Translations under genes and position numbers: made by a program | Notes under the pieces: model-generated | The model's database searches: none | The model's input: the letters and a program-made list of their open reading frames with translations, nothing else | What the model was told of the DNA's origin: nothing | Shown here: positions 1 to 64,000 of the stretch, in pieces | Layout of the letters: each line of letters starts with the position of its first letter | Position numbering within the stretch: position 1 is the first letter of the stretch | Source: Nitrospirillum viridazoti CBAmc | GTDB lineage: Bacteria > Pseudomonadota > Alphaproteobacteria > Azospirillales > Azospirillaceae | Reading direction: 5' to 3' | NCBI RefSeq assembly: GCF_000730165.1 | Contig: NZ_CP022111.1 | Location: 248,001 to 312,000, forward strand | Length of the DNA: 64,000 bases

Positions 1-57
1 GCCGAGGCCGAGGCGCCCTACTATGCTGCCGCCGACAACCAAACCTTGGCGGCATGA
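1..57 (+). CDS. 3' end of an unidentified gene (truncated by window edge)
   Basis: Frame 1 is open from the first base to a TGA at 55-57 and encodes 18 residues ending PYYAAADNQTLAA. Nothing identifies the product; the fragment is too short for a family call. It could equally be a chance open frame, though the Ala-rich, GC-third-position composition matches the neighbouring genes. The next gene runs toward it on the other strand, so if real it is convergent with the thiolase. Confidence 0.3.
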   Translation, partial: AEAEAPYYAAADNQTLAA

Positions 58-326
58 CTCACAACAGTCAGCCTCCGGTAAACTCGGGGCGGTTCACCTG
101 GGCCTACCTCGGCTCTCCTGACCTCAACTCTTCGAACCGCCCGGTGCAGACCCGCATGCCGGGTGGTGTGGGAGGGGCGCGGTCCAAAAGGATCGCCCCC
201 TATCCCGATTATCACTTTCTTCAGCTGTTTAAGTACGTTGCCTCGCTTTTCCCAGGAGGCCCACTTCGATGCCGGTTCACAGCTCAGCTTGTTGCAAGCG
301 GACGCCCGCAGGTGAAGCGCGTCCCT
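58..326. other. Gene-poor stretch with one weak hairpin
   Basis: No convincing coding frame lies here; the open frames are antisense-type or poor. A possible hairpin pairs GGGGCG (174-179) with CGCCCC (194-199) and TCC (183-185) with GGA (190-192) around an AAAA loop. No T-run follows, so it is at best a weak terminator between the left-edge fragment and the end of the thiolase gene. Confidence 0.3.
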
Positions 327-1517
327 CTATGCCCGGCGCTCCAGCACCATCGCGATACCCTGTCCTCCGCCGATGCACATGGTGGCCAGGCCATAGCGGC
401 CACCGATACGCTCCAGCTCATACAGTGCCTTGACGGTGATGATGGCGCCGGTGGCGCCCAGAGGGTGGCCCAATGCGATGGCGCCGCCGTTCGGATTGGT
501 TTTTTCGGGCGGCAGACCCAGGTGCTGAGAGACGGCACAGGCCTGGGCGGCGAAGGCCTCGTTGCTCTCGATGACGTCCATGTCCCCGACCGTCAGGTCG
601 GCTCGTCTCAAGGCGATTTCCACGGCGCCTACCGGACCCAGGCCCATCACCTCCGGGGCAACACCGGCGTGACCCCAGGATATGAGGCGGGACAGGATCG
701 GCAGGTTCCGCCGCTTGGCCTCCGCGGCGGACATGAGCACCACGGCGGCCGCCCCGTCATTGATGCCGGAGGCGTTGCCGGCCGTGACGGTGCCGTCGCG
801 CTGGAAGGCGGGGCGCAGGGTCGCGAGCTGCGCCGGCGACACGTCGGGCCGCACATGCTCATCGGTGTCGAACAGGGTGGTGCCCTTGCGGCTCTTGATC
901 TCGACCGGGACGATCTGGGACTTGAAGCGGCCCTCGGCGATGGCTCGCGCCGCCCGCTGGTGGCTCTCGGCGGCGAAGGTGTCCTGCTGTTCCCGTGTAA
1001 TGCCGCACCGCTTTGCCACGTTCTCGGCCGTGACCCCCATGTGGCCGTGGCCGAAGGGATCCGTCAGGACGGTCAGCAGGGCGTCCGTCAAAGCGGCGTC
1101 GCCCATCTTGGTGCCGCCGCGCGAGGAGGTCAGCACGTGGGGGGCGTTGCTCATGCTTTCCGCCCCGCCGGCGACCGCGACATCGCATTCCCCCAGCCGG
1201 ATAGCCTGTGCCGCCGAAATGATGGCCTGCAAGCCGGAACCGCAGAGCCGGTTCAGGGTCATGGCGGGGGCCGCCGCCGGGATGCCGGCGCGCAGTGCGG
1301 CCACCCGGGCCAGATAGGCGTCATGGGGGTGGCTGGGGATGACCTGCCCCATGACGACGTGGCCCACCCCCTCCGGGGCGGTGCCGGCCCGGCGCAGAGC
1401 CTCGCCGATGACGAGGGCGCCGAGGTCGGCCGGCGTGATGTCCTTCAGCGAGCCGAGGAACCCGCCCACGGCGGTTCGCACCGCCCCGACGATAACGACG
1501 TCATTGCCTGTAACCAT
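327..1517 (-). CDS. Acetyl-CoA C-acyltransferase (thiolase)
   Basis: A 396-residue thiolase of normal family length that cleaves a 3-ketoacyl-CoA with CoA (or condenses two acyl-CoAs) in the cytoplasm. All catalytic motifs are visible: the acyl-accepting cysteine at about residue 92 in NRLCGSGLQ, the histidine in ALGHPLGATG and the second cysteine in CIGGGQG near the C-terminus, with NEAF between. The ATG at 1517 is preceded by AGGAG. It is last of four genes on the minus strand (SnoaL, thioesterase, MDR, thiolase), 11 bases after the MDR stop, so it is probably co-transcribed. It probably releases acetyl- or propionyl-CoA in the last beta-oxidation step; chain-length preference cannot be read from sequence. 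Confidence 0.93.
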   Translation of the reverse strand: MVTGNDVVIVGAVRTAVGGFLGSLKDITPADLGALVIGEALRRAGTAPEGVGHVVMGQVIPSHPHDAYLARVAALRAGIPAAAPAMTLNRLCGSGLQAIISAAQAIRLGECDVAVAGGAESMSNAPHVLTSSRGGTKMGDAALTDALLTVLTDPFGHGHMGVTAENVAKRCGITREQQDTFAAESHQRAARAIAEGRFKSQIVPVEIKSRKGTTLFDTDEHVRPDVSPAQLATLRPAFQRDGTVTAGNASGINDGAAAVVLMSAAEAKRRNLPILSRLISWGHAGVAPEVMGLGPVGAVEIALRRADLTVGDMDVIESNEAFAAQACAVSQHLGLPPEKTNPNGGAIALGHPLGATGAIITVKALYELERIGGRYGLATMCIGGGQGIAMVLERRA

Positions 1518-1528
1518 CCTTAGTTCTC

Positions 1529-2488
1529 CTAGCCATGATCGGGGCCGGAATGCGGGTCGTCCCGCATCCTGATGAGGATCTTCCCCCGGGCCTGGCCGGT
1601 TTCGCTGTGGGCCATCGCCTGGGCGGCATCCTTCAGGGGATAGACCCTGTTCACCGGCAAGCGCAGGTGCCCGGTATCGACCAGCGCCGCAATCTCGCGC
1701 AGACCCTCCTGGTTCGGCGCCACCGCCACGGTCAGGGCGCGGATGCCCCGGGCGGCCGCCAAGTCGGCGGGCAGGGGGGCAGGATCCAGGGTGACCAGGG
1801 TACCGCCCGACCGAAGCACGGCGAAGGACTGGCGCTGGACGTCGCCGCCCACGCTGTCCACCACCAGGTCGACATCGCGCAGTTGGGCGGCGAAATCCTC
1901 GGTCCGGTAGTCGATGACGTGATCCGCGCCCAGGCCGGTGACGAACGCGCGATTGGCGGCGGAGCAGGTGGCGATTACCTCCGCGCCGGCCCGCTTGGCC
2001 AGCTGCACGGCCAGACACCCCACGCCGCCGGCTGCGGCGTGGATCAGCACGCGCTGGCCGGGCCTGAGGTCCCCGTGGTCGAACAGGGCCATCCGCGCCG
2101 TCAGGCCGGCCAAGGGCAGGCCCGCCGCTTCATGGAGGGGCATGTGCCTCGGCGCCGGCGCCACGCTGTCCACCTTGGCGACGACGTAATCCGCCCAGGC
2201 GCCGCCCCGCGGCACGGGGTTCATGCCAAAGACGGCTTGGCCAGGCGTGACGGCGGCCCCGGTACCGCCATCGACCACGGTTCCGGCGATGTCGGCCCCG
2301 GGAACGAAAGGCAGCGACAAGGGCACCCAGGCGCGGAACCAGCCGGCGCGGAATTTCCAGTCGGCGGGGTTGACCGAGCTGCCTTCCTGGCGGATCAGCA
2401 CTTCATTGGGGCCAGGCGACGGCACCGGAATCTCTTCCAGCCGCAGCCGCCTCGTGTCGCCATACGCGTGATACCGAACCGCCTGCAT
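1529..2488 (-). CDS. Quinone oxidoreductase-like MDR family oxidoreductase
   Basis: A 319-residue zinc-free medium-chain dehydrogenase/reductase. The N-terminal GroES-like part contains NPADWKFR and PFVPGADIAGTV; the Rossmann NADPH site reads AAAGGVGCLAVQLAK around residues 145-160. The cysteine/histidine ligands of zinc alcohol dehydrogenases are absent, which fits the QOR/enoyl-reductase branch. I chose ATG 2488 because GAGGAGG lies about 10 bases before it; ATG 2497 in the same frame has that site almost touching it. It lies between the thioesterase and the thiolase in one minus-strand unit, so reduction of an alpha,beta-unsaturated carbonyl intermediate is plausible but inferred. Confidence 0.85.
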   Translation of the reverse strand: MQAVRYHAYGDTRRLRLEEIPVPSPGPNEVLIRQEGSSVNPADWKFRAGWFRAWVPLSLPFVPGADIAGTVVDGGTGAAVTPGQAVFGMNPVPRGGAWADYVVAKVDSVAPAPRHMPLHEAAGLPLAGLTARMALFDHGDLRPGQRVLIHAAAGGVGCLAVQLAKRAGAEVIATCSAANRAFVTGLGADHVIDYRTEDFAAQLRDVDLVVDSVGGDVQRQSFAVLRSGGTLVTLDPAPLPADLAAARGIRALTVAVAPNQEGLREIAALVDTGHLRLPVNRVYPLKDAAQAMAHSETGQARGKILIRMRDDPHSGPDHG

Positions 2489-2507
2489 CGGCTTCATGCC
2501 TCCTCGA

Positions 2508-3392
2508 TCAGGTCGTGGCGCGGAAGAGGGCTTCCTGGCTGGTCGTGGCCACCAGCCGCCCGGCCCGGTCGTAAAGCAGGCCCCGTGCCAGCCCGCGGCC
2601 GTCGCTGCCCGAGGGCGTGTCGCAGACGTAAAGCAGCCACTGGTCGACGCGGACCGGTCTATGGAACCACATGGCATGGTCCAGGCTGTTGATCGTCAGG
2701 GCGTCGCGATTTGTGGACAGGCGGCCCGGCCCCACCGCCACGCCGGCCAACCAGTAGTCAGCGGCGAAGGCCAGGAGGGCGCGCTGCTGGTTGTCATCTT
2801 CCACTCCGGCCGCGCTGGGCATGCGCAGCCAGAAGGCGCGCTGTGGCTTGTCGGTGGGGCGGAGGAAATGGTCATCCGGTTCCACCAGACGCAATTCCAA
2901 GGGGAAAGGGGCCATGTAGGCGGCACTGGAAGGCGGCAGCCGGTCGACCTGGTTGGCGACATAGCGATCCATGGGGATCAGATCCTCAGGGGCCGGCATG
3001 TCGGGCGAGGGTGGGGCCTGATGGTCGAAGCCTGACTCCGGCTCATGAAAGGAACAGTGCATATGGAAGAGGGTCCGGCCCCCCTGCTGGGCGGTCACCC
3101 GGCGCGCGGCGAACCGCCGGCCATCCCGCAACGTCTCGACGATGTAGTCCACCGGCTGGCCAGCGCGGCCTGGGCGCAGGAAGTAGCCATGCAGCGAATG
3201 GGCGGGCCAGCCCGGCCCCGTGGCAGAGGCGGCGGCCAAGCTTTGCCCCAGCACGACGCCACCGAAAAGCGCGCCTGCGGGGTTGGCCTGGGTGTGCCAC
3301 GCCCTGAAGCGGCCCTCCGCCAACCTGTCCAGGCTCAGGACGCCGCCCGCCGTGATGGGGGCGGCCCGGTTCGTGTCGATGGCACCGTCCAT
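2508..3392 (-). CDS. Acyl-CoA thioesterase II (TesB family)
   Basis: A 294-residue double-hotdog thioesterase that hydrolyses acyl-CoA to free acid and CoA. The first hotdog holds NPAGALFGGVVLGQSLAAA and SLHGYFLRPG; the second holds SLDHAMWFHRP, whose Asp is part of the TesB catalytic set, and the C-terminal signature SDGRGLARGLLYDRAGRLVA followed by a conserved Gln in TSQEALFR. The ATG at 3392 lies 7 bases after the stop of the SnoaL gene and has no strong ribosome site, suggesting translational coupling; an in-frame ATG near 3440 would overlap that gene. In a CoA-based pathway it may free CoA from dead-end thioesters. Confidence 0.9.
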   Translation of the reverse strand: MDGAIDTNRAAPITAGGVLSLDRLAEGRFRAWHTQANPAGALFGGVVLGQSLAAASATGPGWPAHSLHGYFLRPGRAGQPVDYIVETLRDGRRFAARRVTAQQGGRTLFHMHCSFHEPESGFDHQAPPSPDMPAPEDLIPMDRYVANQVDRLPPSSAAYMAPFPLELRLVEPDDHFLRPTDKPQRAFWLRMPSAAGVEDDNQQRALLAFAADYWLAGVAVGPGRLSTNRDALTINSLDHAMWFHRPVRVDQWLLYVCDTPSGSDGRGLARGLLYDRAGRLVATTSQEALFRATT

Positions 3393-3399
3393 GCGCCGG

Positions 3400-3957
3400 T
3401 CAACCGGCCGCCGCGTGGCCGTCCACGAGCGGCCGCGCATAGGAGATGTCGTCCCGGTCGCGCCGACACGGACCGGTAGAACTGAGCGCGTGGGCCCAAT
3501 CCGCCGGTAGGGCCACGTCGTTGAAGGTGCCGACCTTCTCGTTGACGCAGACCCGGTGGGCGATGCCCCAGCGGCCCTCGCGCCTCTCGAACCGGTCGAC
3601 ATAGCGCCCGAAGCACAGGCTGGGCGGTCCTTCCCGGTTCTCCCCCCAGAAGATGTAGTAGGTCTCGCCATGGGCGACATCGCCGTCCAGTTCCACCGTG
3701 TGATTGGTGACGATGTGCTGGTGGCGCAGCTGATGCTGGCGATGATAGCCGATCGCCCAGTCCACGAAGGTGGCGGCGTCCCCCTCGGCCACGCCGTGCT
3801 GGTCGACGGCGTCGGGATGATAGGCGGACAGCATCAGGTCGCGGTCGAAACGGTCGACACCGCGGGTGTAGCGGAGCAGGCAATCTTGGATTTCCTGACG
3901 GTCCTTGGCCGCGCGGACGAAGGCCAGTAGATCGCGATCCAGGGATGTTTCGCTCAT
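3400..3957 (-). CDS. SnoaL-like (NTF2-fold) protein
   Basis: A 185-residue protein of the SnoaL-like/NTF2 superfamily, a cone-shaped fold used for small-molecule isomerases, dehydratases and dioxygenase beta subunits. The N-terminal helix LLRYTRGVDRFDRDLMLSAYHPDAV and the strand-rich HIVTNHTVELDGDVAHGETYYI segment with paired histidines are typical. It heads the minus-strand unit ending in the thiolase and is divergent from the TetR gene. Such proteins recur in hydrophobic-compound clusters, but I cannot assign a reaction. A second member is at 25710-26270, with low visible similarity outside the fold pattern. Confidence 0.8.
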   Translation of the reverse strand: MSETSLDRDLLAFVRAAKDRQEIQDCLLRYTRGVDRFDRDLMLSAYHPDAVDQHGVAEGDAATFVDWAIGYHRQHQLRHQHIVTNHTVELDGDVAHGETYYIFWGENREGPPSLCFGRYVDRFERREGRWGIAHRVCVNEKVGTFNDVALPADWAHALSSTGPCRRDRDDISYARPLVDGHAAAG

Positions 3958-4241: not shown

Positions 4242-4931
4242 ATGCGAGGGGTTTTATCCAAGGTTGAGCCATCGCCGCCTTTGCGGCGGCCGCGCCGGCG
4301 CCGGCGGACGCAGTCGGAGGTGATCCAGCGCCTGGTGGACGCGGCGCACCAGCATTTCAATGAGCGCGGCTACACCGCCACCACGACCAAGGACATCGCC
4401 GCGACCGCCGATGTCAGCGAGACCCTGCTCTATCGCCATTTCGGCAGCAAGGCCGGCCTGTTCGACCAGGTGATCTTCGATCCCTTCGATCATATCGCCC
4501 AGCGGTTCCTGAATCCCGCCGGTACGGGGCCCGGTCCGACGCTGGATCTCGCGGGGGCGAAGGTCTTCCTGGACCAATTCCTGACTTTCCTGGACGGCAA
4601 TCATCGCCTGTTGCGCGACTTGCTGGTGAAAGGTATCGCCGAGACGGCGGACGAACGCAGCGAGGCCAGGCTCGACGGCATGCGGCGCCATTACCGCGAG
4701 GCCGCGAAACAACTGGAGGCGCTGTACCAGGAAACCGGCCAGCCCTGCCCGCTGGACCCCGACATCGCGGTGCGCCTGGCCTTGGGCATGGTGATTTCAG
4801 CCAGCCTGATGGGCGAGTGGCTGTTCCCTGACGGCGCCCCCGACCAGGATCGGTTGGCCGCCAATATCAGACTCATGATGATCCGCGCCTTGGCACCGGC
4901 GAAGGCAGCGACGGACGGATCCCCGGGCTAG
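4242..4931 (+). CDS. TetR/AcrR family transcriptional regulator
   Basis: A 229-residue TetR-type repressor. The N-terminal helix-turn-helix is clear: AAHQHFNERGYTATTTKDIA then ADVSETLLYRHFGSKAGLF, preceded by a very basic stretch (RRPRRRRR). The C-terminal half is the variable ligand-binding, dimerising region. I chose ATG 4242 because GGGAGAGG lies 9 bases upstream; an in-frame ATG at 4218 and a TTG at 4191 would add 8 or 17 residues. The P450 gene begins 42 bases downstream on the same strand, so the regulator probably heads that operon and may also control the divergent SnoaL operon. The layout recalls CamR of camphor clusters. Confidence 0.9.
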   Translation: MRGVLSKVEPSPPLRRPRRRRRTQSEVIQRLVDAAHQHFNERGYTATTTKDIAATADVSETLLYRHFGSKAGLFDQVIFDPFDHIAQRFLNPAGTGPGPTLDLAGAKVFLDQFLTFLDGNHRLLRDLLVKGIAETADERSEARLDGMRRHYREAAKQLEALYQETGQPCPLDPDIAVRLALGMVISASLMGEWLFPDGAPDQDRLAANIRLMMIRALAPAKAATDGSPG

Positions 4932-4973: not shown

Positions 4974-6203
4974 ATGACAGCAAGCTTGGCTGCCGAGCGG
5001 CCGGCCCCCGTGCGACCGGAGCATGTGCCGGCGGAGCGCGTGGTGCACTTCGACATCTACGATGTGCCGGGGGCCGACGAGGATGTGCAACTTGCCTACC
5101 GCGCGTTCCAGCAGTCCTGCCCCGACATCTTCTGGACGCCGGCCAATGGCGGCCACTGGGTGGCGACCCGGGCCGAGGATATCGAGGCCATACAGCGGGA
5201 TCCGGAACGCTTCTCCCACCGGCGGGTGACCTTGCCGCCGATGCCGCCGGAGATGCCCCCGCAGATTCCGCTGGAATTGGACCCGCCCGTCCATGCCGCC
5301 TACCGCCGACCGCTAACCCGGGCGCTGCTGCCCAAGGTGGTCAACGCGCTGGAGGCCAAGGTCAATGACACCGCCGTCAGCCTGATCGAGGGGTTGAAGC
5401 CACGCGGCGAATGCGATTTCGTCGCTGACTTCGCCAAGATCCTGCCCATCGTCGTCTTCCTCGACCTGGTCGACCTGCCGCGCGCGGACAGCCCGGGCCT
5501 GCTGGAACTGACCGAGGACGCGGTGCGCGGCACGACCATGGAGGTGAAGCAGCGCGCCCATGCCGGTGTGGCCGCCTATCTGCACCCCTGGGTCACGGCC
5601 CGCCGGGAACGGCCGGGCGACGACCTGCTGTCGGTCATCGTCAACGCCGACATCGACGGGGAGCGCATCGGGTTCGGCGAGGCCATGGCCTTCGCCAGCC
5701 TGGTGCTGTTCGGCGGCCTGGACACCGTGGCATCCGTCCTGGGGTTCATCGCCCATTTCCTGGCGCGCAATCCCGATCATCGCCGCCAGCTGTGCGACCG
5801 GCTGGACGATGACGCCTTCCTGAACGGCGCCATCGAGGAACTGCTGCGTCGGCATGGTGCCGCCAATACCGCTCGGGTCGTGACCCGCGATCTGGAGTTC
5901 AAGGGCGTGTTCCTGAAGGCGGGAGACATGATCCTGCCACCCAATCTGCTGTACGGCCTGGATGAGCGGCGGGTGGACGACCCGTTGCGGGTGGATTTCA
6001 CCCGACCGTTCCCGGTTCCGCACGCCGTCTTCGGCAATGGTGCCCACACCTGTCCGGGCGCCGTGCTGGCGCGGCGGGAGATCAAGGCATTTCTGCGGGA
6101 GTGGCTGCGGCGCATCCCAGACTTCCAGGTGAAGCCGGGCGCCAAACCGGTGCTGGCGACGGGCATGGTCAACGGGGTGCTGAGCCTGCCCCTGGTCTGG
6201 TGA
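4974..6203 (+). CDS. Cytochrome P450, CYP101 (P450cam)-like
   Basis: A 409-residue soluble bacterial P450. The heme loop FGNGAHTCPG places the thiolate ligand at Cys360, close to Cys357 of P450cam. The I-helix GGLDTVASV carries the acid-alcohol pair, and ELLRRHG holds the ExxR glutamate and arginine. CYP101-type signatures include NGGHWVATR near the N-terminus and the C-terminal RIPDFQVKPGA then GVLSLPLVW. The loop that carries substrate-binding Tyr96 in P450cam is here Pro-rich (PPMPPEMPPQIPLELDPP) with no tyrosine, so the substrate is probably not camphor. GGAGATCAACG precedes ATG 4974. It takes electrons from a [2Fe-2S] ferredoxin, and one is encoded four genes on. Confidence 0.93.
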   Translation: MTASLAAERPAPVRPEHVPAERVVHFDIYDVPGADEDVQLAYRAFQQSCPDIFWTPANGGHWVATRAEDIEAIQRDPERFSHRRVTLPPMPPEMPPQIPLELDPPVHAAYRRPLTRALLPKVVNALEAKVNDTAVSLIEGLKPRGECDFVADFAKILPIVVFLDLVDLPRADSPGLLELTEDAVRGTTMEVKQRAHAGVAAYLHPWVTARRERPGDDLLSVIVNADIDGERIGFGEAMAFASLVLFGGLDTVASVLGFIAHFLARNPDHRRQLCDRLDDDAFLNGAIEELLRRHGAANTARVVTRDLEFKGVFLKAGDMILPPNLLYGLDERRVDDPLRVDFTRPFPVPHAVFGNGAHTCPGAVLARREIKAFLREWLRRIPDFQVKPGAKPVLATGMVNGVLSLPLVW

Positions 6204-6251: not shown

Positions 6252-7049
6252 ATGACATCGGCAGTTCCACAGCTGGACCGGCTGTTCGGCCTGCAGGGCC
6301 GCACCGCGGTGATCACCGGCGCCGCGACGGGCATCGGGCGGGCGACCGCCCAACTGTTCGCCGACGCCGGCGCCCAGGTGGCCGCCCTGGATATCAACAT
6401 CGACAAGGCGGAGGAATTCGCCGCCGGGGTTCGGTCGAAAGGGGGGAAGGCGGTCGCGATCCGCATGGACCAGGGTGACCCGACGGCCGTCGCTGCCGCC
6501 TTCGCGCGGTTGGATGAAGAGCTTCCTCGTGTCGATGTCCTGCTGAACTGCGCCGCGATATATCCGCGCTGCAATTTCGAGACGGTGACGCCCGAGTTCC
6601 TGGACCGCATGTACGCCATCAACTTCCGCGGCGTCTTCCAGTGCACGCAAGAGGCGGTGAAGCGGATGAAGGCTACCGGCGGCGGGTCCATCATCAACAT
6701 CTCCTCCGTCACATCGCTGAAGGCCGGCATCTACGACAACGTCCAGTACGCCATGACGAAAGCGGCGCTGAACGCGCTGACGCAGTCCGTCGCCCTGGAA
6801 TATGCCGAACACAATATCCGCGTGAACGCCATCCTGCCCGGTGGGGTCGCCACCGAGGCCGCCGTGGCGTCCGTCCAGGTGGGCGATCCCTTGCGCGGCC
6901 CCTTCCTGCAGCCGGGTCGAGTGCCCCTGGGCAGCCGAAACGCCGATCCCCAGGAGATCGCCAGCGCCTGCCTCTACCTCGCCAGCGGCGCCTCCAGCTT
7001 CGTCACCGGCCAGTTGATCGCCGTCGACGGTGGTTTCCTCATCAGCTGA
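6252..7049 (+). CDS. Short-chain dehydrogenase/reductase (SDR)
   Basis: A 265-residue classical SDR. The cofactor site TGAATGIGR lies at about residues 23-31, NCAA replaces the usual NNAG, and the catalytic set is Ser in NISSVTS with YAMTK (Tyr/Lys) 14 residues on. GGGAGG at 6240-6245 sets the ATG at 6252. Its place between two P450 genes, where cam operons carry the hydroxycamphor dehydrogenase, suggests oxidation of a P450-made secondary alcohol to a ketone; camD itself is an MDR enzyme, so this would be an analogue rather than a homologue. Aspartate after the second beta strand (ALDI) favours NAD(H). Confidence 0.9.
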   Translation: MTSAVPQLDRLFGLQGRTAVITGAATGIGRATAQLFADAGAQVAALDINIDKAEEFAAGVRSKGGKAVAIRMDQGDPTAVAAAFARLDEELPRVDVLLNCAAIYPRCNFETVTPEFLDRMYAINFRGVFQCTQEAVKRMKATGGGSIINISSVTSLKAGIYDNVQYAMTKAALNALTQSVALEYAEHNIRVNAILPGGVATEAAVASVQVGDPLRGPFLQPGRVPLGSRNADPQEIASACLYLASGASSFVTGQLIAVDGGFLIS

Positions 7050-7062: not shown

Positions 7063-8310
7063 ATGGTTGCGCAAGCCCGGATCGCCATCCGCGATTTCGA
7101 CGACCCCACCTACGACCCTTTCGCGGCCGACGAGGTCAACTTTGGGGATCATCTCGATCCCTATCCCCAGATCGCGCGGTGGCGGGACCAGGCCCCCGTG
7201 ATCAAGGGCGCTTATCGGCCTGAAATGGGGCTGGCGGCGGCGCTGATGCCCGACCGGGAGAATTTCATCATCGTCGGCACCAGCGAGATCAACACCGTCC
7301 TGACCGATACCAGCCGCTTCTCCAACGCCGCCTATAAGTTCAACCTGGGCGTCACGTTCGGCCAGGGCAGCATCAGCACCATGGACAACCCGGACCATGG
7401 CCGCTGGCGCAAGATTTTCCAGAAGATCTTCCTGCCCCAGTACGTCAGCACCTGGGGTGAGACCATCGTCGACCCCGTGGTGCGGGACCTCATGGGGAAA
7501 TTCCTCGAACGCGGTCACGCCGACCTCATCGAGGAATTCACGCTCCGCTATCCCTTCGAGGTCATCTACCGCCAGCTGGATCTGCCGCAGAGCGATGTCC
7601 GAACCTTCCAGCGCCTGGCCATCGGCCAGACGGACTACGTCAACTATGAAAAGGCGATCGAGGCGGGCGTCAAACTGGGCGCGTACTTCAAGGATCTGGT
7701 GGCGGAACGGCGGGCCCGGCCGGGGGACGACCTGGTCAGTCTGCTGGCGCTGACCAGCGTCGATGGCGACTATTTGCCCGAGGAAATCCTGATCTCCTTC
7801 CTGCGGCAGCTGATGAACGCCGCCGGCGACACGACCTACCGAGGCACCAGTGTTCTTCTGACGGCCCTGCTGGAAAACCCCGATCAGCTAGAGGCCCTAC
7901 GCGCCAACCGGTCGCTGATCCCCCAGGCCATCGAGGAGGCCTTGCGCTGGGATGGCCCGGTGGCGGTGCAGCTGCGCATGGCCACCTGTGATACGCAACT
8001 GGCTGGCGTCGACATTCCCGCCGGGTCCTTGCTGGATGTCGTGGCCGGGGCGGCCAACCGCGACCCGGCGCTTTATCCCGATCCCGACCGCTTCAATATT
8101 TTCCGGGACAGGAAGCCGCATTTCTCCTTCTCACGCGGGCCGCACATCTGCGTCGGCCAGCATCTGGCGCGGGTGGAGATGACCCGCGCGCTGCATGCCG
8201 TGCTGGACCACTTGCCGGGCTTGCGTCCCGACCCTGACAAGCCCCGGGCCGAAATCCGCGGATCCATGATGCGGGTTCCCCACCACCTGTACGTCCGCTT
8301 TGGCGACTGA
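7063..8310 (+). CDS. Cytochrome P450 (second, non-CYP101 type)
   Basis: A 415-residue P450 distinct from its CYP101-like neighbours. The heme loop is FSRGPHICVG with Cys363 as ligand; the I-helix reads NAAGDTTYRG with the usual Thr pair, and EEALRWDGP holds ExxR. Residues 1-60 include a YDPFAADEVNFGDHLDPYPQ segment and an ISTMDNPDHGRWRK heme-propionate region. ATG 7063 was chosen over the GTG at 7030, which lies inside the upstream SDR gene. It ends 22 bases before the ferredoxin gene and is probably served by it. The CYP family cannot be named with confidence. Confidence 0.92.
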   Translation: MVAQARIAIRDFDDPTYDPFAADEVNFGDHLDPYPQIARWRDQAPVIKGAYRPEMGLAAALMPDRENFIIVGTSEINTVLTDTSRFSNAAYKFNLGVTFGQGSISTMDNPDHGRWRKIFQKIFLPQYVSTWGETIVDPVVRDLMGKFLERGHADLIEEFTLRYPFEVIYRQLDLPQSDVRTFQRLAIGQTDYVNYEKAIEAGVKLGAYFKDLVAERRARPGDDLVSLLALTSVDGDYLPEEILISFLRQLMNAAGDTTYRGTSVLLTALLENPDQLEALRANRSLIPQAIEEALRWDGPVAVQLRMATCDTQLAGVDIPAGSLLDVVAGAANRDPALYPDPDRFNIFRDRKPHFSFSRGPHICVGQHLARVEMTRALHAVLDHLPGLRPDPDKPRAEIRGSMMRVPHHLYVRFGD

Positions 8311-8332: not shown

Positions 8333-8650
8333 ATGCCCACTATCAGTGTGACCACCCGTGATGGTCGAGCGGTTCCCGTGATTGCCGAGGTCGGCCGATC
8401 CCTTATGGAAGCCATCCGGGGCGCCGGCATCGACGACCTGATGGCCCTGTGCGGCGGCTCATGTTCCTGTGCCACCTGCCATGTGAAGGTGGATGCCATG
8501 CACGCCCACCTTCTGTCGCCGGCCAGCGAGTACGAGAACGACCTGCTGGATAGCTCCAGCCACCGCGACGGCACATCCCGCCTGTCGTGCCAGATCACCG
8601 TCTCGGCGGAACTGGACGGCCTGCGCGTGACCATCGCACCTGAAGACTGA
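8333..8650 (+). CDS. [2Fe-2S] ferredoxin, putidaredoxin type
   Basis: A 105-residue vertebrate/putidaredoxin-type ferredoxin that passes single electrons to class I P450s. Cluster cysteines are Cys40, Cys46, Cys49 and Cys86, the exact CX5CX2C...C spacing of putidaredoxin; an extra Cys44 lies inside the loop. The C-terminal half has the conserved SRLSCQI and ELDGLRV segments. AAGGA lies about 12 bases before the ATG. No ferredoxin reductase is encoded anywhere in the window, so the electron supply must come from elsewhere in the genome. It may serve all three P450s of the island. Confidence 0.93.
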
Positions 8651-51791: not shown

Positions 51792-51815
51792 CGAACGGCC
51801 GGCCGGGCGTCGCGC

Positions 51816-52769: not shown

Positions 52770-52871
52770 CGATATCGGCCATGCGCTGCTTGGAGCGCCC
52801 GCCAGGGGCCGTGGTTGACCCTGGCCGCCCGCTCTGGGAATGGGGAAGGGGACCACCCTTTGAGGGACGCC

Positions 52872-54056: not shown

Positions 54057-54064
54057 GGACTGCC

Positions 54065-55964: not shown

Positions 55965-55970
55965 GGGGCA

Positions 55971-56957
55971 TCAATCCAGGTTGGACGGCGGCTCTTCCTG
56001 ATTGGCGAGACCATCCGATAGGGTTTGCAGCAGCCGCAGGACCATTTGATCCTGGTGCCGCGCGATGTCGGCCACCGGCTGTCCGCCGTTGGCCTCGGTC
56101 ACTTGCCTCACCAGCAGGGCCTGCAGTTTCGGATTTGCCAGGTCGGGGTCCTTCATGGTCTTCCAACGCGCCAGGATGCCGGGCGAGAAATGGCTGAGGA
56201 AGCCGGCAAGCCCCGCCTCGCCGCCGCTGGTGTGGAAGGTGGTGAACTGCCCCTGGACGGCCCATTTCAGGGCGGGGCCGAAGCGGATGGCCCGATCCAC
56301 GTCCTCCACCGTGGCATAGCCCCCCGCCACCAGGGCCACCGCCTCGCGGAACATGGCGCTGGTCAGGCGATTGGCGATGTGGCCCACGATCTCCCGCCGG
56401 ACATGCACGGGCTGCTTGCGCATGGAGGCGTAGAGCGCCGTCACGGTTTCCACCGCCACGGGGTCGGTCCGGCCGCCGCCGCCCACCTCCACCAAGGGCA
56501 TCAGGTGGACGGGGTTGAAGGGGTGGCCCAGGACGCAGCGCTGCGGGTGGAGGCACCCTTCCTGCAACTGGCTGACCGGCATGCCGGAGGTGCTGCTGGC
56601 GATGATGACGTCCGGCGGGGCCAGGCGGCCTAAATCGGCATACAGCGCTGCCTTCACCTCTGGCCGTTCCGGCGCACTCTCCTGGACGAAATCGGCCCCG
56701 TCCAGCGCCGCTGCCAGGTCCGTATGGAAGGTCACGGCCGTGGGGTCGGCACCGGCGGCCAAACCCCGTTCGCGTAGGGCCGGCCAGGCGGCAGCGATAT
56801 GGGCCCGTACCTTGGCCGGGGCGTCGGGGGTGGGATCGGCAACCGCAACCGCATACCCTCGGGCCAGGAACGCCGCCACCCATCCCGCTCCGATCAGGCC
56901 GGCGCCGACCACGGCAACCTTGGTGATGGTGTCGGCACCGCGGTAGGAGGCGGCCAT
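55971..56957 (-). CDS. 3-hydroxyacyl-CoA dehydrogenase (stand-alone)
   Basis: A 328-residue NAD-dependent 3-hydroxyacyl-CoA dehydrogenase, close in layout to L-carnitine dehydrogenase. VAVVGAGLIGAGWVAAFLARGY is the NAD motif at about residues 14-35 (kept here as its outline), QESAPE is the dinucleotide loop, and LGHPFNPVHLMPLVEVG contains the catalytic His. The C-terminal helical domain begins near residue 195. It lies 3 bases after the crotonase stop, and its product would be the 3-ketoacyl-CoA used by the thiolases or the retro-aldolase module. Confidence 0.9.
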   Translation of the reverse strand: MAASYRGADTITKVAVVGAGLIGAGWVAAFLARGYAVAVADPTPDAPAKVRAHIAAAWPALRERGLAAGADPTAVTFHTDLAAALDGADFVQESAPERPEVKAALYADLGRLAPPDVIIASSTSGMPVSQLQEGCLHPQRCVLGHPFNPVHLMPLVEVGGGGRTDPVAVETVTALYASMRKQPVHVRREIVGHIANRLTSAMFREAVALVAGGYATVEDVDRAIRFGPALKWAVQGQFTTFHTSGGEAGLAGFLSHFSPGILARWKTMKDPDLANPKLQALLVRQVTEANGGQPVADIARHQDQMVLRLLQTLSDGLANQEEPPSNLD

Positions 56958-56960
56958 GGC

Positions 56961-57770
56961 TCAATACCCTTCGAAGGTGGGCTTGCGCTTCTCCGCGAAG
57001 GCCGTCGCCGCCTCCTTGTAGTCATGCGTCAGCATGGTCAGGGATTCGTACGCGATCGACAGCTCCAGGACCTGGTTCAACTGGGCCTTCAGCTGCTTGT
57101 TCACCGCGGCCTTGGACCAGCGCACCGCCCAGACGGGGTTGGCGGCGATTTCCGTCGCCACCTTCAACGCCTCCTCCAGGACTGTTTCCCGGGGGTGGGC
57201 GTAGTTGATCAGGCCCAGGGCGGCGGCCTCCGCACCCTTCAGCACCTTGCCGCGCATCAGGAATTCCTTGGCGCGTTGCGGGCCGACCAGCAGGGGCCAC
57301 ACGACGGCGCCGCCATCGCCGGCCACCAGGCCGACCTTGACGTGGGTATCGCCCAGGCGGGCGTCGTCGGCCACCAGGCTCATGTCGCAGAACAGCGCCA
57401 AGGTCAGGCCCAGGCCAATGGCATCGCCATTGACCGCAGCGATCACCGGCTGGGGCGTCAACAGCATGTGTTCGAAGATGCGCAGCGTATTCTGCGGCAC
57501 CCGCAGGGCGTACTTCAGCCCAAATTCAGTGCCGGCGCGGGCGGCCATCTTCTTGACATCCCCGCCGGCGGAGAAGGCGCGGCCGGCCCCGGTCAGGACG
57601 ATGGCCTTGATGCTTTCATCCTGGGCCAGGTCCACCCAGATATATTCCAGTTCCTTGTGGTTCTCCGGCCCGACGGCATTCAGCTTTTCAGGGTCATTCA
57701 TGGTGACGGTGGCGACGCCGTTGCCATCGATCTCGACCTTCAGGAACTCGTACTTGCTGTAGTCAACCAT
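56961..57770 (-). CDS. Enoyl-CoA hydratase/isomerase family (crotonase), atypical active site
   Basis: A 269-residue crotonase. GAGRAFSAGGDVKKM and NGDAIGLGLTLALFCDM hold the oxyanion residues. The two hydratase glutamates are replaced (GLGLTLA; LGDTHVKVG), but VGLVAGDGGAVVW has an Asp near the PaaG-type position, so an isomerase or hydrolase is possible. ATG 57770 is preceded by AGGAG about 12 bases up. It is between FadB-like and hydroxyacyl-CoA dehydrogenase genes in one unit. Confidence 0.88.
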   Translation of the reverse strand: MVDYSKYEFLKVEIDGNGVATVTMNDPEKLNAVGPENHKELEYIWVDLAQDESIKAIVLTGAGRAFSAGGDVKKMAARAGTEFGLKYALRVPQNTLRIFEHMLLTPQPVIAAVNGDAIGLGLTLALFCDMSLVADDARLGDTHVKVGLVAGDGGAVVWPLLVGPQRAKEFLMRGKVLKGAEAAALGLINYAHPRETVLEEALKVATEIAANPVWAVRWSKAAVNKQLKAQLNQVLELSIAYESLTMLTHDYKEAATAFAEKRKPTFEGY

Positions 57771-57827
57771 CTCTCTCGTTCTCCTAGGGGCACCGCCTCG
57801 GTTGGACGGCACCAGTCTCTCGGTTCC

Positions 57828-59930
<2,103 letters not shown>

Positions 59931-60252: not shown

Positions 60253-61401
60253 ATGCATTTCAATCTGACCGATGAACAGTCGATGTTCCGCGATTCCGTG
60301 GCCGCGTTCGCCCGGCGCCATCTGGCCGCCGGCGCCCTGGCCCGCGCCCATGCCGATGACTATCCCTGGGATGTAGCCCGCCTAATGGCGGAGCAGGGCC
60401 TGCTGGGCATCACCGTGCCGGAGGAAAAGGGCGGCGTCGGCGGCTCCCTCATGGACGCGGTGATTGCCATAGAGCAGATCGCCGCCGTCTGTCCCCGGTC
60501 GGCCGACGTGATCCAGGCCGGCAATTTCGGCGCCATCCGCACCTTCGCCCAATTCGCCAATGAGCAGCAGCAGAAGGACTATCTGCAGCCGCTGCTGACC
60601 GGCGATGGGCTGATCGCCGTGGCCATGACCGAACCGGACGCGGGTTCCGCCGTCACCGAGCTGACCACCATGGCCGTGCCGGACGGCGACGGTTTCCGCG
60701 TGACCGGCCAGAAGATCTTCACCACCCATGGCCTGCACGCCACGGTGTTCCTGGTCTATGTCCGCTACGGTCCGGGCACGGGCAACATCGGTTCCGTCCT
60801 GATCGAGCGCGGGCAGGAGGGCTTCACCTTCGGCAAGCCGGTCCGCTTCCTGTCGGGCGAGGAATGGAACCCGCTGTTCTTCGACAATGTCTATGTGCCC
60901 AAGGAAAAGGTCCTGCTGGGGCCTGGCGGCTTCAAGAAGCAGATCGCCGGCTTCAATGTGGAGCGCATCGGCAACACGGCGCGCAGCTTGGCCCTGGGAC
61001 GCTACGCCTACACGGTCGCGCTGGAGCACGCCAAGACCCGCAAGCAATTCGGCCGCCTGCTGTGCGACTTCCAGGGACTTCAATGGAAGTTCGCGGAGAT
61101 GAAGGTGAAGCTGGACGCGGCCCAGCTGCTGCTCTACCGCGCCGCCGCCAATGCCGACGCCGGCCTGCCCTCGGCCGAGGAAACGGCCATCGCCAAGGTC
61201 GCCTGCAACCGCGCCGGTTTCGAGTGCGCGAATGAGGCCATGCAGATCATGGGCGGTGCCGGCTTCAGCGAGGACGGACTGGTCGAATACTGCCTGCGCC
61301 GCACCCGCGGTTGGATGATCGCCGGCGGCACCATCGAAATCCTGCTGAACCGCATCGCCGAAACGGTCTTCGACCGGCGCTTCGCGCAAGCGCCGGCGTG
61401 A
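60253..61401 (+). CDS. Acyl-CoA dehydrogenase (single, canonical type)
   Basis: A 382-residue homomeric-type ACAD. FNLTDEQSMFRDSVAAFAR starts the helical domain, VAMTEPDAGSAVTEL (about residues 122-136) is the FAD signature, and GYAYTVA-like KTRKQFGRLLCDFQGLQWKFA and MQIMGGAGF complete it. GTIEILLNRIAE near the C-terminus holds a Glu at the usual catalytic-base segment. ATG 60253 follows GGAAAG; an ATG at 60241 is in frame. It starts the plus-strand unit that includes the Rieske and flavoprotein genes. Confidence 0.92.
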   Translation: MHFNLTDEQSMFRDSVAAFARRHLAAGALARAHADDYPWDVARLMAEQGLLGITVPEEKGGVGGSLMDAVIAIEQIAAVCPRSADVIQAGNFGAIRTFAQFANEQQQKDYLQPLLTGDGLIAVAMTEPDAGSAVTELTTMAVPDGDGFRVTGQKIFTTHGLHATVFLVYVRYGPGTGNIGSVLIERGQEGFTFGKPVRFLSGEEWNPLFFDNVYVPKEKVLLGPGGFKKQIAGFNVERIGNTARSLALGRYAYTVALEHAKTRKQFGRLLCDFQGLQWKFAEMKVKLDAAQLLLYRAAANADAGLPSAEETAIAKVACNRAGFECANEAMQIMGGAGFSEDGLVEYCLRRTRGWMIAGGTIEILLNRIAETVFDRRFAQAPA

Positions 61402-61448: not shown

Positions 61449-62783
61449 ATGACCGACAGGATCGACGCGCCGAAACTGGAAACGGACCGGCCTGAGGTGC
61501 GGCCGGATTTCGTTCCGGCTGCCAGCTACATCGCGCCGGAATACGTCCGGCTGGAAAAGGAACGGCTGTGGCCCCGGGTGTGGCAGATGGCCTGCCGCGA
61601 GGAGGAGATCGCCCAACCGGGCGACTACTACACCTACGACATCGCGGATGAGTCCATCACCGTCGTCCGGCAGAAGTCCGGCGCCATCGCCGCCTACTTC
61701 AACGTCTGTCCCCACCGGGGGCGGCGCCTGACGGCCGGCTGCGGCCATACCGCCCGCCTGCACTGCAAGTACCACGGCTGGAAATGGACGCTGGACGGCA
61801 AGCCGGCGGACATCGTCGACCGTCAGGATTGGGGTGACTGCCTGCAGGATGCCGACGTCACGCTGGAGGCGGTGAAGGTCGGTACCTGGGGGGGCTGGGT
61901 CTTCATTAACATGGACCCGGAGTGCGAGCCCCTGGAGGAATTCCTGGAGCCTGCCAAGGCCATTCTGGATCCCTACCAGTTCGACAAGATGCGCTACGTC
62001 TGGCGCAAGAGCATCGTCATGCCCTGCAATTGGAAGGTGGCGTTGGAGGCCTTCAACGAGGGCTATCACGTCCAGACGACGCACCGCCAGCTGCTGGCCT
62101 ATCTGGACGACATGACCTACAGCGCCGCCAAGGGCAAGCACGGCATGTTCGGCTATGCCCCCAACCGGCTGTACGGCCTGCCCAGTCCGCGCCTGGGCGA
62201 GGCGAAGGGCGACATGCGCCGGGGCCTCTACCTGTTCAACAAGGAAATCTGGGACACCCTGCAGGCCACCACGACGAAAGAGATGCTGGCCGCCGCCGCC
62301 CGCCTGGTGGAACTGCCGGAAGACGCCGACCCCTACACCATCTATGGCGCCTTTGCCCAATTCCATCGGGAGGAGGCGGCGAAGAACAACCGGCCCTTCC
62401 CCGACGTGCCGGTGGAAACGCTGATCGCCGCCGGCACCGACTGGCACATCTTCCCCAACCTGGTCTTCCTGCAGCAGCCGACCAACGTGCTGTTCTACCG
62501 GGCGCGGCCCAACGGCGACGACCCCGACAGCTGCATCTTCGAGATCAACGTCATCGAGCGCTTCGCCGAGGGCGCCAATCCCGACGTGGCGGTGGAGCAC
62601 GGGGCCGACTGGGCCAAGGTCGATTGGGGCCTCATTCTGGAGCAGGACTTCCAGAACATGGGCGAGGTGCAGAAGGGCATGAAATCCCGCGGCTTCAAGG
62701 GCGCGCGGCCCAGCCCGGTGCAGGAACGCGCCATCAGCAACTTCCATGAAACCCTGCATCACTATCTGTGGGACAAGAACTGA
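61449..62783 (+). CDS. Rieske non-heme iron oxygenase, alpha subunit
   Basis: A 444-residue ring-hydroxylating oxygenase alpha subunit. Rieske [2Fe-2S] ligands are Cys87, His89, Cys106 and His109 (CPHRGRRL and CKYHGW). Mononuclear iron ligands include His207 and His212 in FNEGYHVQTTH; the bridging acid before them is Glu204 rather than the usual Asp, as in the CntA-type branch. No beta subunit or reductase gene is adjacent, so it is probably an alpha-only monooxygenase that uses another reductase. GGGAGGGAGAGG precedes ATG 61449. The stop overlaps the next start (TGATG), coupling it to the KstD-like flavoprotein. Confidence 0.92.
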   Translation: MTDRIDAPKLETDRPEVRPDFVPAASYIAPEYVRLEKERLWPRVWQMACREEEIAQPGDYYTYDIADESITVVRQKSGAIAAYFNVCPHRGRRLTAGCGHTARLHCKYHGWKWTLDGKPADIVDRQDWGDCLQDADVTLEAVKVGTWGGWVFINMDPECEPLEEFLEPAKAILDPYQFDKMRYVWRKSIVMPCNWKVALEAFNEGYHVQTTHRQLLAYLDDMTYSAAKGKHGMFGYAPNRLYGLPSPRLGEAKGDMRRGLYLFNKEIWDTLQATTTKEMLAAAARLVELPEDADPYTIYGAFAQFHREEAAKNNRPFPDVPVETLIAAGTDWHIFPNLVFLQQPTNVLFYRARPNGDDPDSCIFEINVIERFAEGANPDVAVEHGADWAKVDWGLILEQDFQNMGEVQKGMKSRGFKGARPSPVQERAISNFHETLHHYLWDKN

Positions 62784-64000
62784 TGAGCCAGTGGGACGAA
62801 ACGGCCGACTTCGTGATCGTCGGCTCCGGGGGCGGATCCATGGCCGCCGGCCTGTACCTGAAGTCCATCGGCAAGCAGCCGCTGATCCTGGAGAAAACCG
62901 ACAAGATCGGCGGGTCCACCGCCATGTCCGGCGGCGTGCTGTGGATTCCCAACCACCCGCTGCAGGCCCGTTTCGGCGTCCAGGACAGTGAGGAGGCCGG
63001 GCGTCGCTACCTCAACGCGGCGGTGGGCCACGACGCCGGCCCCGGCTCGACGCCTGCCCGGAAGGAGGCGTTCCTGAAGGCCGGGCCGCCGATGGTCACC
63101 TTCCTGGAAAGCCAGGGGATGCAATTCATCCGCGCCGAGGGCTGGTCCGATTATTATGACGAGCTGGACGGCGGCTGCGCCCGCAGCCGGTCCCTGGCCG
63201 CGCCCATGCTGGACGCTCGCGACATGGGCCCACTGTTCGACAATCTGCGCATGGGTCCCATGGTTGTGCCACTGCCGGTGGACCAGACGCGCAACATCAC
63301 CCTGGCCACGCGCACGCTCAAAGGCATGTGGGAAGGGGTGAAGCTGCTGATGCGGCTGCGGCGCATGGCCAAGACGGGTAAGCCCATCCTGAGCTATGGT
63401 GGCGCGTTGCAGGGGCGCATGCTGATGCTGTCGGAAGCCAAGGGCGTGCCCATCCGCACCAACTGCGGCATCGTCGATCTGGTGGAAGAGGAAGGCCGTA
63501 TCACCGGCGTGGTGGTGGCGCAGGATGGACAGCGCCGCCGCATCCGCGCCCGGGACGGCGTGCTGATCAATGCTGGCGGCTTTTCCCGCAACAGGGCCAT
63601 GCGTGAGAAGTACGGGCCGTCGCCGGCCTCCACCGACTGGACCAACGCCAACCCCGGCGACACGGGCGAGATGATCGAGATCGCCCAGGCCCATGGCGCC
63701 GCCCTGGACCTGATGGACCAGGCCTGGTGGGTGCCCGGCACCCTGCCACCCAACGGCGCCGTCTTCATGCATGTGACCGACCTATCCAAGCCCCACGTCA
63801 TCGTGGTGGACCAGAACGGCCGGCGCATCATGAACGAAAGCCAGTCCTACATGGCCAACGGCCAAGCCCTGTACAAAGCCGGTGTACCCGCCTGGGTGAT
63901 CATGGACAGCCGCCACCGCCAGCGCTACGCCTGGGGCGTGCAGCCGCCAGGACAGACGCCGGACGACTGGAAATCCAGCGGCTATATGAAGTCGGCCTCC
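62783..64000 (+). CDS. FAD-dependent dehydrogenase, 3-ketosteroid delta1-dehydrogenase (KstD)-like, 3' truncated
   Basis: The first 406 residues of a flavoprotein of the fumarate reductase/KstD superfamily are present before the window ends; family members have about 500-580. FVIVGSGGGSMAAGLYLKS at residues 10-28 and KIGGSTAMSGGVLWIPNH (about 41-58) are the FAD signatures, and NAGGFSRN near residue 275 closes the FAD domain. KstD removes hydrogens from ring A of 3-ketosteroids; relatives act on other cyclic ketones. Coupled to a Rieske oxygenase, the layout recalls KshA/KstD steroid ring opening, but substrate is open. Confidence 0.85.
   Translation, partial: MSQWDETADFVIVGSGGGSMAAGLYLKSIGKQPLILEKTDKIGGSTAMSGGVLWIPNHPLQARFGVQDSEEAGRRYLNAAVGHDAGPGSTPARKEAFLKAGPPMVTFLESQGMQFIRAEGWSDYYDELDGGCARSRSLAAPMLDARDMGPLFDNLRMGPMVVPLPVDQTRNITLATRTLKGMWEGVKLLMRLRRMAKTGKPILSYGGALQGRMLMLSEAKGVPIRTNCGIVDLVEEEGRITGVVVAQDGQRRRIRARDGVLINAGGFSRNRAMREKYGPSPASTDWTNANPGDTGEMIEIAQAHGAALDLMDQAWWVPGTLPPNGAVFMHVTDLSKPHVIVVDQNGRRIMNESQSYMANGQALYKAGVPAWVIMDSRHRQRYAWGVQPPGQTPDDWKSSGYMKSAS

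What the first reader, a model, noticed from the sequence alone, without database searches (positions are those of the whole stretch)
1..64000. An apparently undescribed cyclic-terpenoid or steroid-like catabolic island
At least 50 genes for oxygenation, CoA activation, heteromeric-ACAD beta-oxidation, a retro-aldolase-like module and a KstD-like flavoprotein lie together with import, MFS and five regulators. No extradiol dioxygenase, KstR or Mce genes are present, so it does not match the known mycobacterial or Comamonas steroid sets, nor the camphor set. The combination of P450cam-like enzymes with steroid-type side-chain machinery is the unusual point.
Basis: partly seen in the sequence, partly recalled or inferred. 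Interest (0 to 1): 0.7.

Follow-up and report, generated by a model that had tools for sequence, protein, structure and literature searches.

The report
Catabolic island with extradiol-free ring module
This stretch of a bacterial genome is a movable-looking set of about 50 breakdown genes, probably for a ringed plant or sterol-like compound; related sets occur in other bacteria, and the usual ring-cutting enzyme is missing from it.

Summary
In detail: 57 genes, mostly catabolic, with P450s, CoA ligases, paired and fused acyl-CoA dehydrogenases, a Ltp2/Sal-like protein with OB-fold partner, a Rieske oxygenase and a KstD-type flavoprotein. It is not the 9,10-seco steroid pathway: IpdA, KshA and HsaC orthologs were not found in this genome, while two same-genus genomes carry them. 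Nor is the combination unique: 35 of 72 genes have reciprocal best hits in a Paraburkholderia sprentiae plasmid region (6 in a same-size control stretch) and 26 in Azospirillum sp. B510. The rarest shared part is Rieske + KstD-like + a thiamine-dependent dehydrogenase (E1/lipoyl/E2), contiguous in P. sprentiae. I read it as an extradiol-free way to open a ring beside a ketone; that step is inferred, and some relatives have only two of the three parts. The genes lie in a strain-variable region beside tRNA-Glu and an integrase. The substrate is unknown; a polycyclic plant isoprenoid is my guess, and a mosaic of pathways the main rival. Ten searches of open-licence papers listed nothing describing the set.

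The parts
327..3957 (-). Operon: BktB-type thiolase (327-1517), Zn-ADH/quinone oxidoreductase (1529-2488), acyl-CoA thioesterase (2508-3440), SnoaL-like (3400-3957)
   Evidence: RBH to P. sprentiae: thiolase 61%, SnoaL 54%
4320..4931 (+). TetR-family regulator; below the NCBIfam cut-off of all 10 families listed, KstR not among them
4974..6203 (+). CYP101-like (P450cam-like) cytochrome P450
   Evidence: I-helix DT pair and heme motif; 52% RBH in P. sprentiae
6252..7049 (+). SDR oxidoreductase
7063..8310 (+). Second P450, not P450cam-like; 59% in P. sprentiae, 53% in B510, 50% in N. pentaromativorans US6-1
8333..8650 (+). 2Fe-2S ferredoxin (start moved upstream from 8405)
8663..9796 (+). EstA-type beta-lactamase-fold serine hydrolase
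   Evidence: 53-54% RBH
9793..11400 (+). GMC (choline dehydrogenase-like) oxidoreductase
   Evidence: 51% RBH in P. sprentiae and B510
11744..12937 (-). Second CYP101-like P450; best solved match listed as 'Cytochrome P450' 3lxh, then CYP101D1
12973..14535 (-). FadD3-like acyl-CoA ligase, below the FadD3 model cut-off (588 vs 657 bits)
   Evidence: 45% RBH in the G001 steroid cluster
14564..16045 (-). Aldehyde dehydrogenase
16114..18465 (-). TonB-dependent receptor
18772..19566 (-). SDR oxidoreductase
   Evidence: 47% RBH in P. sprentiae
19734..22299 (+). TauD-like dioxygenase (19734-20612) and GMC oxidoreductase (20647-22299)
22318..23547 (-). CaiB/BaiF CoA-transferase
   Evidence: 57% RBH in P. 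sprentiae
23769..27022 (+). Hydratase, OYE-type reductase, SnoaL-like, SDR
   Evidence: OYE 52-57% and SnoaL 57-62% RBH
27155..27742 (+). FolE (GTP cyclohydrolase I); role here unexplained
   Evidence: DNA of this gene also matches a stretch of contig C1
27787..32359 (+). ACAD alpha/beta-like pair (27787-28950, 28959-30059) and a fused ACAD (30056-32359) whose halves match two chains of one solved complex, Tcur3481 and Tcur3483
32385..34584 (+). Enoyl-CoA hydratase (58% and 61% RBH in P. sprentiae and B510) and MFS transporter
34594..36885 (-). Ltp2/Sal-like thiolase-fold protein with a YDAF motif (34594-35754), OB-fold/ChsH2-C protein without cysteines (35751-36110), hydratase (36115-36885)
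37075..40541 (.). Thiolase (+, 37075-38253), SDR (-, 38277-38963), acyl-CoA ligase (-, 38976-40541)
40791..43843 (+). Thiamine-dependent dehydrogenase of 2-oxo acid type: E1alpha, E1beta, free lipoyl domain, E2 catalytic domain
   Evidence: E1alpha type in 1 of 385 sampled alphaproteobacteria and 17 of 72,556 plasmids
43917..46109 (-). Carboxymuconolactone decarboxylase-like and Amidohydro_3 proteins
46281..50640 (.). LysR (-), TauD-like dioxygenase (+), Amidohydro_2 (+, 48473-49705, 64% RBH in P. sprentiae), IclR (-)
50943..55198 (+). IclR, Zn-ADH, ACAD pair of PimC/PimD type (52872-54056, 54065-55198)
55239..59930 (-). Alpha/beta hydrolase, 3-hydroxyacyl-CoA dehydrogenase, hydratase, FadB-like bifunctional enzyme
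60253..61401 (+). Single acyl-CoA dehydrogenase
61449..62783 (+). Rieske oxygenase with CxH and CxxH pairs; not found by the KshA query
62783..64000 (+). KstD-type flavoprotein, continues to 64429; aligned Tyr, Tyr and Tyr-PGAG positions of the KstD active site present

Best explanation
The window is part of a catabolic island in a variable region next to tRNA-Glu in a close relative of Azospirillum sp. B4. It most likely degrades a polycyclic isoprenoid (plant terpenoid or sterol-like compound). Proposed flow, all inferred from families: TonB import; P450/ferredoxin hydroxylation; GMC, SDR and aldehyde dehydrogenase oxidation to acids; CoA activation; beta-oxidation by heteromeric ACADs with hydratases, hydroxyacyl-CoA dehydrogenases and thiolases, with an aldol-type cut by the Ltp-like pair. 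The remaining ring ketone is desaturated by the KstD-like enzyme and hydroxylated by the Rieske enzyme; the thiamine-dependent E1/lipoyl/E2 complex then cuts the resulting 1,2-dioxygenated or 2-oxo acid intermediate to an acyl-CoA, so no extradiol dioxygenase is needed. Shown: the genes, the presence of key residues, recurrence of much of the set, and that three classical steroid core genes were not found. Inferred: the substrate, every reaction, and the ring-opening step.
For: Families. Recurrence: 35 of 72 genes have RBHs in P. sprentiae 520-640 kb (32 at 40% identity or more) and 26 of 72 (24 at 40% or more; one of them an IS fragment) in 76 kb of B510, against 6 (3) in a control 120 kb of the same P. 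sprentiae plasmid and 16 (7) in 80 kb of a same-genus steroid cluster. 21 genes have RBHs in both, among them P450, EstA, GMC, OYE, ligase, E1alpha, E1beta, lipoyl, ACAD pair, Rieske, KstD-like, ETF. Module: Rieske-KstD-E1alpha-E1beta-lipoyl-E2 contiguous in P. sprentiae; Rieske-E1alpha-E1beta-lipoyl-ligase-KstD on one strand in B510; KstD next to E1alpha-E1beta in RAC03 (one small hypothetical gene between) and V4; Rieske-2Fe2S-FAD-E1alpha-E1beta-lipoyl in Streptomyces NBC_00564; record overlaps far above chance. KstD residues. Fused ACAD. IpdA/KshA/HsaC orthologs not found. Variable site.
Against: In the window the E1/E2 genes and the Rieske-KstD pair are 17.6 kb apart. In RAC03 and V4 the Rieske gene is about 123 and 68 kb from E1alpha, and in RAC03 it sits beside a different thiamine enzyme. 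Same-genus G004 has Rieske (49%) and KstD-like (46%) genes with no E1 gene in the 40 kb fetched. Diaphorobacter and PGU19 have the E1 type without a close KstD-like gene. The sister genome G006, with another island, also gives 20 RBHs (11 at 40% or more), so part of the overlap reflects common catabolic families. Many window genes (fused ACAD, the 27.8-30.1 kb ACAD pair, FolE, both TauD, TonB receptor, FadB) have no RBH in P. sprentiae or B510. No expression or growth data.
Confidence: 0.5

Rival explanations
1. Mosaic: several independent catabolic operons for different substrates gathered at one integration hot spot, not one pathway.
For: The Ltp-like gene type occurs in 95 of 385 sampled alphaproteobacteria; of the 10 neighbourhoods fetched (some alike, such as G203/G088 and G175/G272) none resembles the window beyond a few genes. 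Outside its near relative G005 no locus seen reproduces the whole window. Another island with 90% identical ETF and 80% identical thiolase DNA sits at the same site in G006. Four regulators of three families lie in the window.
Against: 29 window genes have RBHs within one 120-kb stretch of P. sprentiae and 15 of the 21 genes shared with both P. sprentiae and B510 lie in the window; the control stretch gives 6.
Confidence: 0.33
2. Smaller cyclic isoprenoid such as a monoterpenoid, ionone or abscisic acid, as the P450cam-like enzymes suggest.
For: Two CYP101-type P450s in the window and a third at about 73 kb.
Against: Four ACAD enzymes, two of them gene pairs and one fused pair, and a Ltp-like pair suggest a bulky substrate (inference). 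The abscisic-acid user Novosphingobium P6W was listed only in the CYP101 plasmid search (36.7%), not among the hits of the second P450, Rieske, E1alpha or KstD searches (its chromosome was not searched).
Confidence: 0.12
3. A variant of the known 9,10-seco steroid pathway with missing genes elsewhere in the genome.
For: KstD-like residues, FadD3-like ligase, Ltp-like pair, IpdE2-like ACAD parts.
Against: IpdA, KshA and HsaC queries taken from same-genus G001, which match G003 at 100%, find only distant proteins here.
Confidence: 0.05

Closest known systems
Plasmid region of Paraburkholderia sprentiae WSM5005 pl1WSM5005, 520-640 kb (no characterisation found)
   Same: 35 RBHs of 72 genes; includes P450s, EstA, GMC, OYE, E1/E2, Rieske, KstD-like, ETF, Ltp-like pair
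   Different: Gene order differs; region has MMPL, DUF1302 and DUF1329 proteins where this island has TonB receptors; no RBH for the fused ACAD, FolE or TauD genes
Azospirillum sp. B510 pAB510b, 130-206 kb (no characterisation found)
   Same: 26 RBHs of 72 genes (one is an IS fragment), including Rieske, KstD-like, E1alpha, E1beta and lipoyl genes
   Different: No RBH for the Ltp-like pair or E2; many IS elements
9,10-seco steroid degradation (here seen in same-genus genome G001)
   Same: KstD-type residues, FadD3-like ligase, paired ACADs, Ltp-like protein
   Different: No KshA, HsaC or IpdA ortholog found in the genome
Camphor pathway (P450cam)
   Same: CYP101-like P450s and a 2Fe-2S ferredoxin
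   Different: No Baeyer-Villiger monooxygenase among the family hits of the window genes; large CoA-dependent machinery instead (pathway content recalled)
TcLtp2 / CtSal steroid side-chain aldolases
   Same: Thiolase fold, OB-fold partner gene next door, Tyr in place of the thiolase His
   Different: Motif is YDAF, not YDHF or YDCY; partner protein has no zinc-binding cysteines

Membership tests
9,10-seco steroid pathway | IpdA, KshA and HsaC orthologs in the genome | tested here: not met
   queries from G001, positive in G003
9,10-seco steroid pathway | Extradiol dioxygenase in the cluster | tested here: not met
   none among family hits of window genes; genome matches to TIGR03213 (3, all under cut-off) and LigB (2, over cut-off) lie outside the window and fetched flanks
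KstD (3-ketosteroid dehydrogenase) | Active-site Tyr/Tyr/Tyr/Gly (numbering recalled as Y119, Y318, Y487, G491) | tested here: met
KstD (3-ketosteroid dehydrogenase) | Curated model score (NF009478, cut-off 789) | tested here: inconclusive
   542 bits, but only the first 406 residues were scored
KshA | Window Rieske found by a KshA query | tested here: not met
   the three G000 matches lie on other contigs
Heteromeric ACAD | Parts matching the two different chains of a solved complex | tested here: met
   fused ACAD: halves match Tcur3481 and Tcur3483 (6wy8, 6wy9); its oligomeric state was not testable
Ltp2/Sal aldolase | YDHF (Ltp2) or YDCY (Sal) catalytic motif | tested here: not met
   YDAF at residue 282
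Ltp2/Sal aldolase | Zn-binding DUF35 partner | tested here: not met
   OB_ChsH2_C domain found but the protein has no cysteine
CYP101 P450 | Closest solved relatives are CYP101 members | tested here: met
   about 280-319 bits for CYP101 members against 166 bits for the next family; same for 11744-12937
CYP101 P450 | At least 40% identity to a named CYP101 (threshold recalled) | not tested
   identity was reported only to records named 'cytochrome P450'
tRNA-associated genomic island | tRNA plus adjacent integrase and strain-variable cargo | tested here: met
   tRNA-Glu -19567..-19492 and integrase from -19407; content beyond it differs in G001, G002, G003, G006
tRNA-associated genomic island | Direct repeat (attR) at the far end | tested here: not met
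   no second copy of the tRNA 3' end on the + strand from -80 to +144 kb
Abietane (dit) pathway | Ring dioxygenase with an extradiol enzyme | tested here: not met
   no extradiol enzyme among the family hits; dit genes recalled, not compared

The most novel reading that the evidence does not exclude
Bacteria of several lineages (alpha- and betaproteobacteria, perhaps Streptomyces) open a non-aromatic ring of a polycyclic isoprenoid with a three-part module, KstD-like desaturase + Rieske oxygenase + lipoyl-dependent thiamine dehydrogenase, giving an acyl-CoA directly and bypassing aromatisation and extradiol cleavage.
Probability: 0.22. Interest if true: 0.75.

Novelty: new variant of a known kind. 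Interest (0 to 1): 0.5.

Why it matters
Aerobic degradation of sterol- and terpenoid-like rings is known mainly (recalled) through aromatisation and extradiol cleavage. A recurring plasmid- and island-borne set without an extradiol gene, pairing KstD- and Rieske-type enzymes with a thiamine-dependent complex, points to another ring-opening logic in bacteria that include a legume-nodule isolate and isolates from tomatine-treated soil, and it gives a few small operons to test first.

Tried and rejected
Classical steroid pathway: rejected. Synteny by DNA: only G005 (a contig of the same length as one of Azospirillum sp. B4, so probably that strain) shares the middle of the window, about 14.6-55.7 kb over three contigs at 89-98% DNA identity; only one 20-kb chunk was searched. 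Alphaproteobacterial contexts of CYP101-like and Ltp-like hits were of little help. The identical inverted IS66 copies at -19164..-15987 and 105009..108186 looked like a composite transposon; rejected, because each copy has its own 8-bp target duplication and G001, G002 and G003 lack the left copy. Abscisic acid: the 12 passages of PMC7996341 shown name no degradation genes. Tomatine: in PMC10653915 the words pyruvate dehydrogenase, acetoin and P450 do not occur; ten Tom-isolate plasmids carry the E1alpha type at 65.5-66.5%, and passages report strain RC1 degrading steroidal but not oleanane saponins. Ten paper searches listed no paper that, by title and start of abstract, describes this set; PMC12294881 on a terpenoid-transforming Rhodococcus was listed but not read. 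Rieske hits in G045, G173 and G270 sit with an ACAD pair and a ligase but no E1 in the 20 kb fetched. Predicted structures and fold searches were not used.

Counts to read with care: RBHs needed E 1e-8 and over 60% query coverage, and the 72 genes include one IS fragment at -233..57; one search hid genes under 40% for L140-L143; one search examined 9 of 17 E1alpha records (the other 8 are Tom plasmids); only the best 4-5 candidates per genome were scored, so a true relative could be missed; the chance values treat related records as independent. In Streptomyces the best KstD match is not the FAD gene next to E1alpha. On rechecking I lowered the novel case from 0.25 to 0.22, because in RAC03 and V4 the Rieske gene is far from E1alpha and G004 has the pair without E1.
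Full report
What is there. The window is G000:C2:248001-312000 of a 7.38-Mb genome in 4 contigs. Its nearest named relative found is Azospirillum sp. B4, 98% identical over the fused ACAD. My gene caller finds 57 genes, 56 complete and 91% coding in the flanked call. Families are from NCBIfam and Pfam (56 of 57 genes) and solved structures. The genes fall into short divergent operons rather than one long one. The set continues to the right: AraC, TonB receptor, MFS, ETF alpha/beta, a third CYP101-type P450, ferredoxin, ferredoxin reductase and a long OYE-type enzyme reach about 80 kb (TonB, MFS, ETF and ferredoxin named by eye).

Is it the steroid pathway? No. Same-genus genomes G001 and G003 hold a cluster that I read as a classical steroid set (HsaA, HsaD-G, KshA, KstD, IpdAB, EchA20 and FadD3 types, named by me from the G001 sequence). 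G001's IpdA, KshA and HsaC proteins as queries match G003 at 100% but find only distant proteins in this genome (E 3e-14, 4e-13 and 9e-5). Two LigB-type proteins, three type I extradiol matches under cut-off and other Rieske proteins exist elsewhere in the genome, outside the window and its fetched flanks.

Is it unprecedented? No. Searches of 72,556 plasmids with single proteins led to one region of P. sprentiae pl1WSM5005 and one of Azospirillum B510 pAB510b. Of 72 genes (-233 to 80 kb, including one IS fragment), 35 have reciprocal best hits in P. sprentiae 520-640 kb, 29 of them in the window, and 26 in B510 130-206 kb (one is the IS fragment); 21 in both, 15 of these in the window. A control 120 kb of the same P. 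sprentiae plasmid gives 6. Same-genus catabolic clusters give 16 (G001 steroid), 20 (G006) and 15 (G004), of which 7, 11 and 4 reach 40% identity, against 32 and 24 for P. sprentiae and B510. N. pentaromativorans US6-1, Sphingomonas paeninsulae, Massilia putida, Rhodococcus USK13 and one Sphingobium RAC03 region give 11, 13, 9 (one the IS fragment), 9 and 4.

The rare core. The E1alpha type is found in 1 of 385 sampled alphaproteobacteria (this genome) at E 1e-95 and in 17 plasmid records at E 1e-70. The Rieske type is in 4 of 385 and 11 plasmids; the KstD-like type in 8 plasmids. Record overlaps are 4 (E1alpha and KstD), 5 (E1alpha and Rieske) and 5 (Rieske and KstD), with chance values near 1e-13, 2e-16 and 2e-18 if records were independent, which they are not. 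Overlap in a record is not always closeness: in RAC03 and V4 the Rieske gene lies about 123 and 68 kb from E1alpha. Of 9 E1alpha neighbourhoods examined, 7 hold a KstD-like match at E under 1e-70 within about 20 kb (P. sprentiae, B510, RAC03, V4, two Tom plasmids, Streptomyces) and 6 a Rieske match at E under 1e-40 (P. sprentiae, B510, Diaphorobacter, two Tom plasmids, Streptomyces; four of these only 28-37% identical). PGU19 has only a weak KstD match and Diaphorobacter none. In P. sprentiae the six genes are contiguous on one strand. In this window the two halves are 17.6 kb apart, and in same-genus G004 a Rieske and a KstD-like gene (49% and 46%) occur with no E1 gene in the 40 kb fetched.

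Mechanism. The KstD-like protein keeps the aligned active-site tyrosines and the YPGAG motif; the Rieske protein has CxH and CxxH pairs. E1alpha is a divergent pyruvate-dehydrogenase-type subunit with a GDG motif, next to E1beta, a free lipoyl domain and an E2 catalytic domain; no E3 gene is among the family hits of the window. I infer that desaturation and hydroxylation beside a ring ketone give a 1,2-dioxygenated ring or a 2-oxo acid which the thiamine complex cuts to an acyl-CoA. In Rhodococcus USK13 and RAC03 the Rieske gene sits close to an FAD-dependent oxidoreductase and a thiamine-binding protein of another type, and S. paeninsulae has a more distant E1 set (39-43%) near Rieske and KstD-like genes; these fit the same logic with different thiamine enzymes. 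All of this is inference from families. The fused ACAD matches both chains of a solved complex. The Ltp-like protein has Tyr where thiolases have His, as in Ltp2 and Sal, but YDAF instead of YDHF or YDCY (passages of PMC12329534 seen), so I call it aldolase-like, not a member.

Where it sits. A tRNA-Glu lies at -19567..-19492, followed by an integrase gene interrupted by IS66. All 7 genomes of the genus searched have the left flank. G001, G002 and G003 lack this IS66 copy and run from the flank into integrase sequence before diverging; in G003 the stretch homologous to 89-102 kb lies about 13 kb from its integrase; in G006 the same flank leads into another catabolic island with 90% identical ETF and 80% identical thiolase DNA. 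No attR was found. So a variable site is well supported; its right border is not known.

Verdict. A real catabolic island with a recurring gene set; substrate unknown; single pathway more likely than not but not shown; the extradiol-free ring module is the testable novelty. Ten searches of open-licence PMC listed no paper on it.

Noticed in passing
window 27155-27742: FolE (GTP cyclohydrolase I) gene inside the catabolic operon, while its DNA also matches a stretch of contig C1; no role found.
   Followed up: partly
L031-L034 (G001:C16:10001-90000): A same-genus genome carries what looks like a classical steroid degradation cluster.
   Followed up: partly
window -19164..-15987 and 105009..108186: Two 100% identical inverted IS66-type elements of 3178 bp, each with its own 8-bp target duplication; the left one interrupts the integrase gene.
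   Followed up: yes
L035-L038 and L177 (G006:C1:175001-275000): A different catabolic island beside the same flank in another genome of the genus.
   Followed up: partly
window -233..57: Fragment matching an annotated IS3 transposase of Massilia putida (73%) and an ORF of B510 (81%), just before the first catabolic gene.
   Followed up: no
window 140809-143999: Two genes that look like an indolepyruvate-ferredoxin-oxidoreductase type enzyme further right on the contig; named by eye from sequence, not searched.
   Followed up: no
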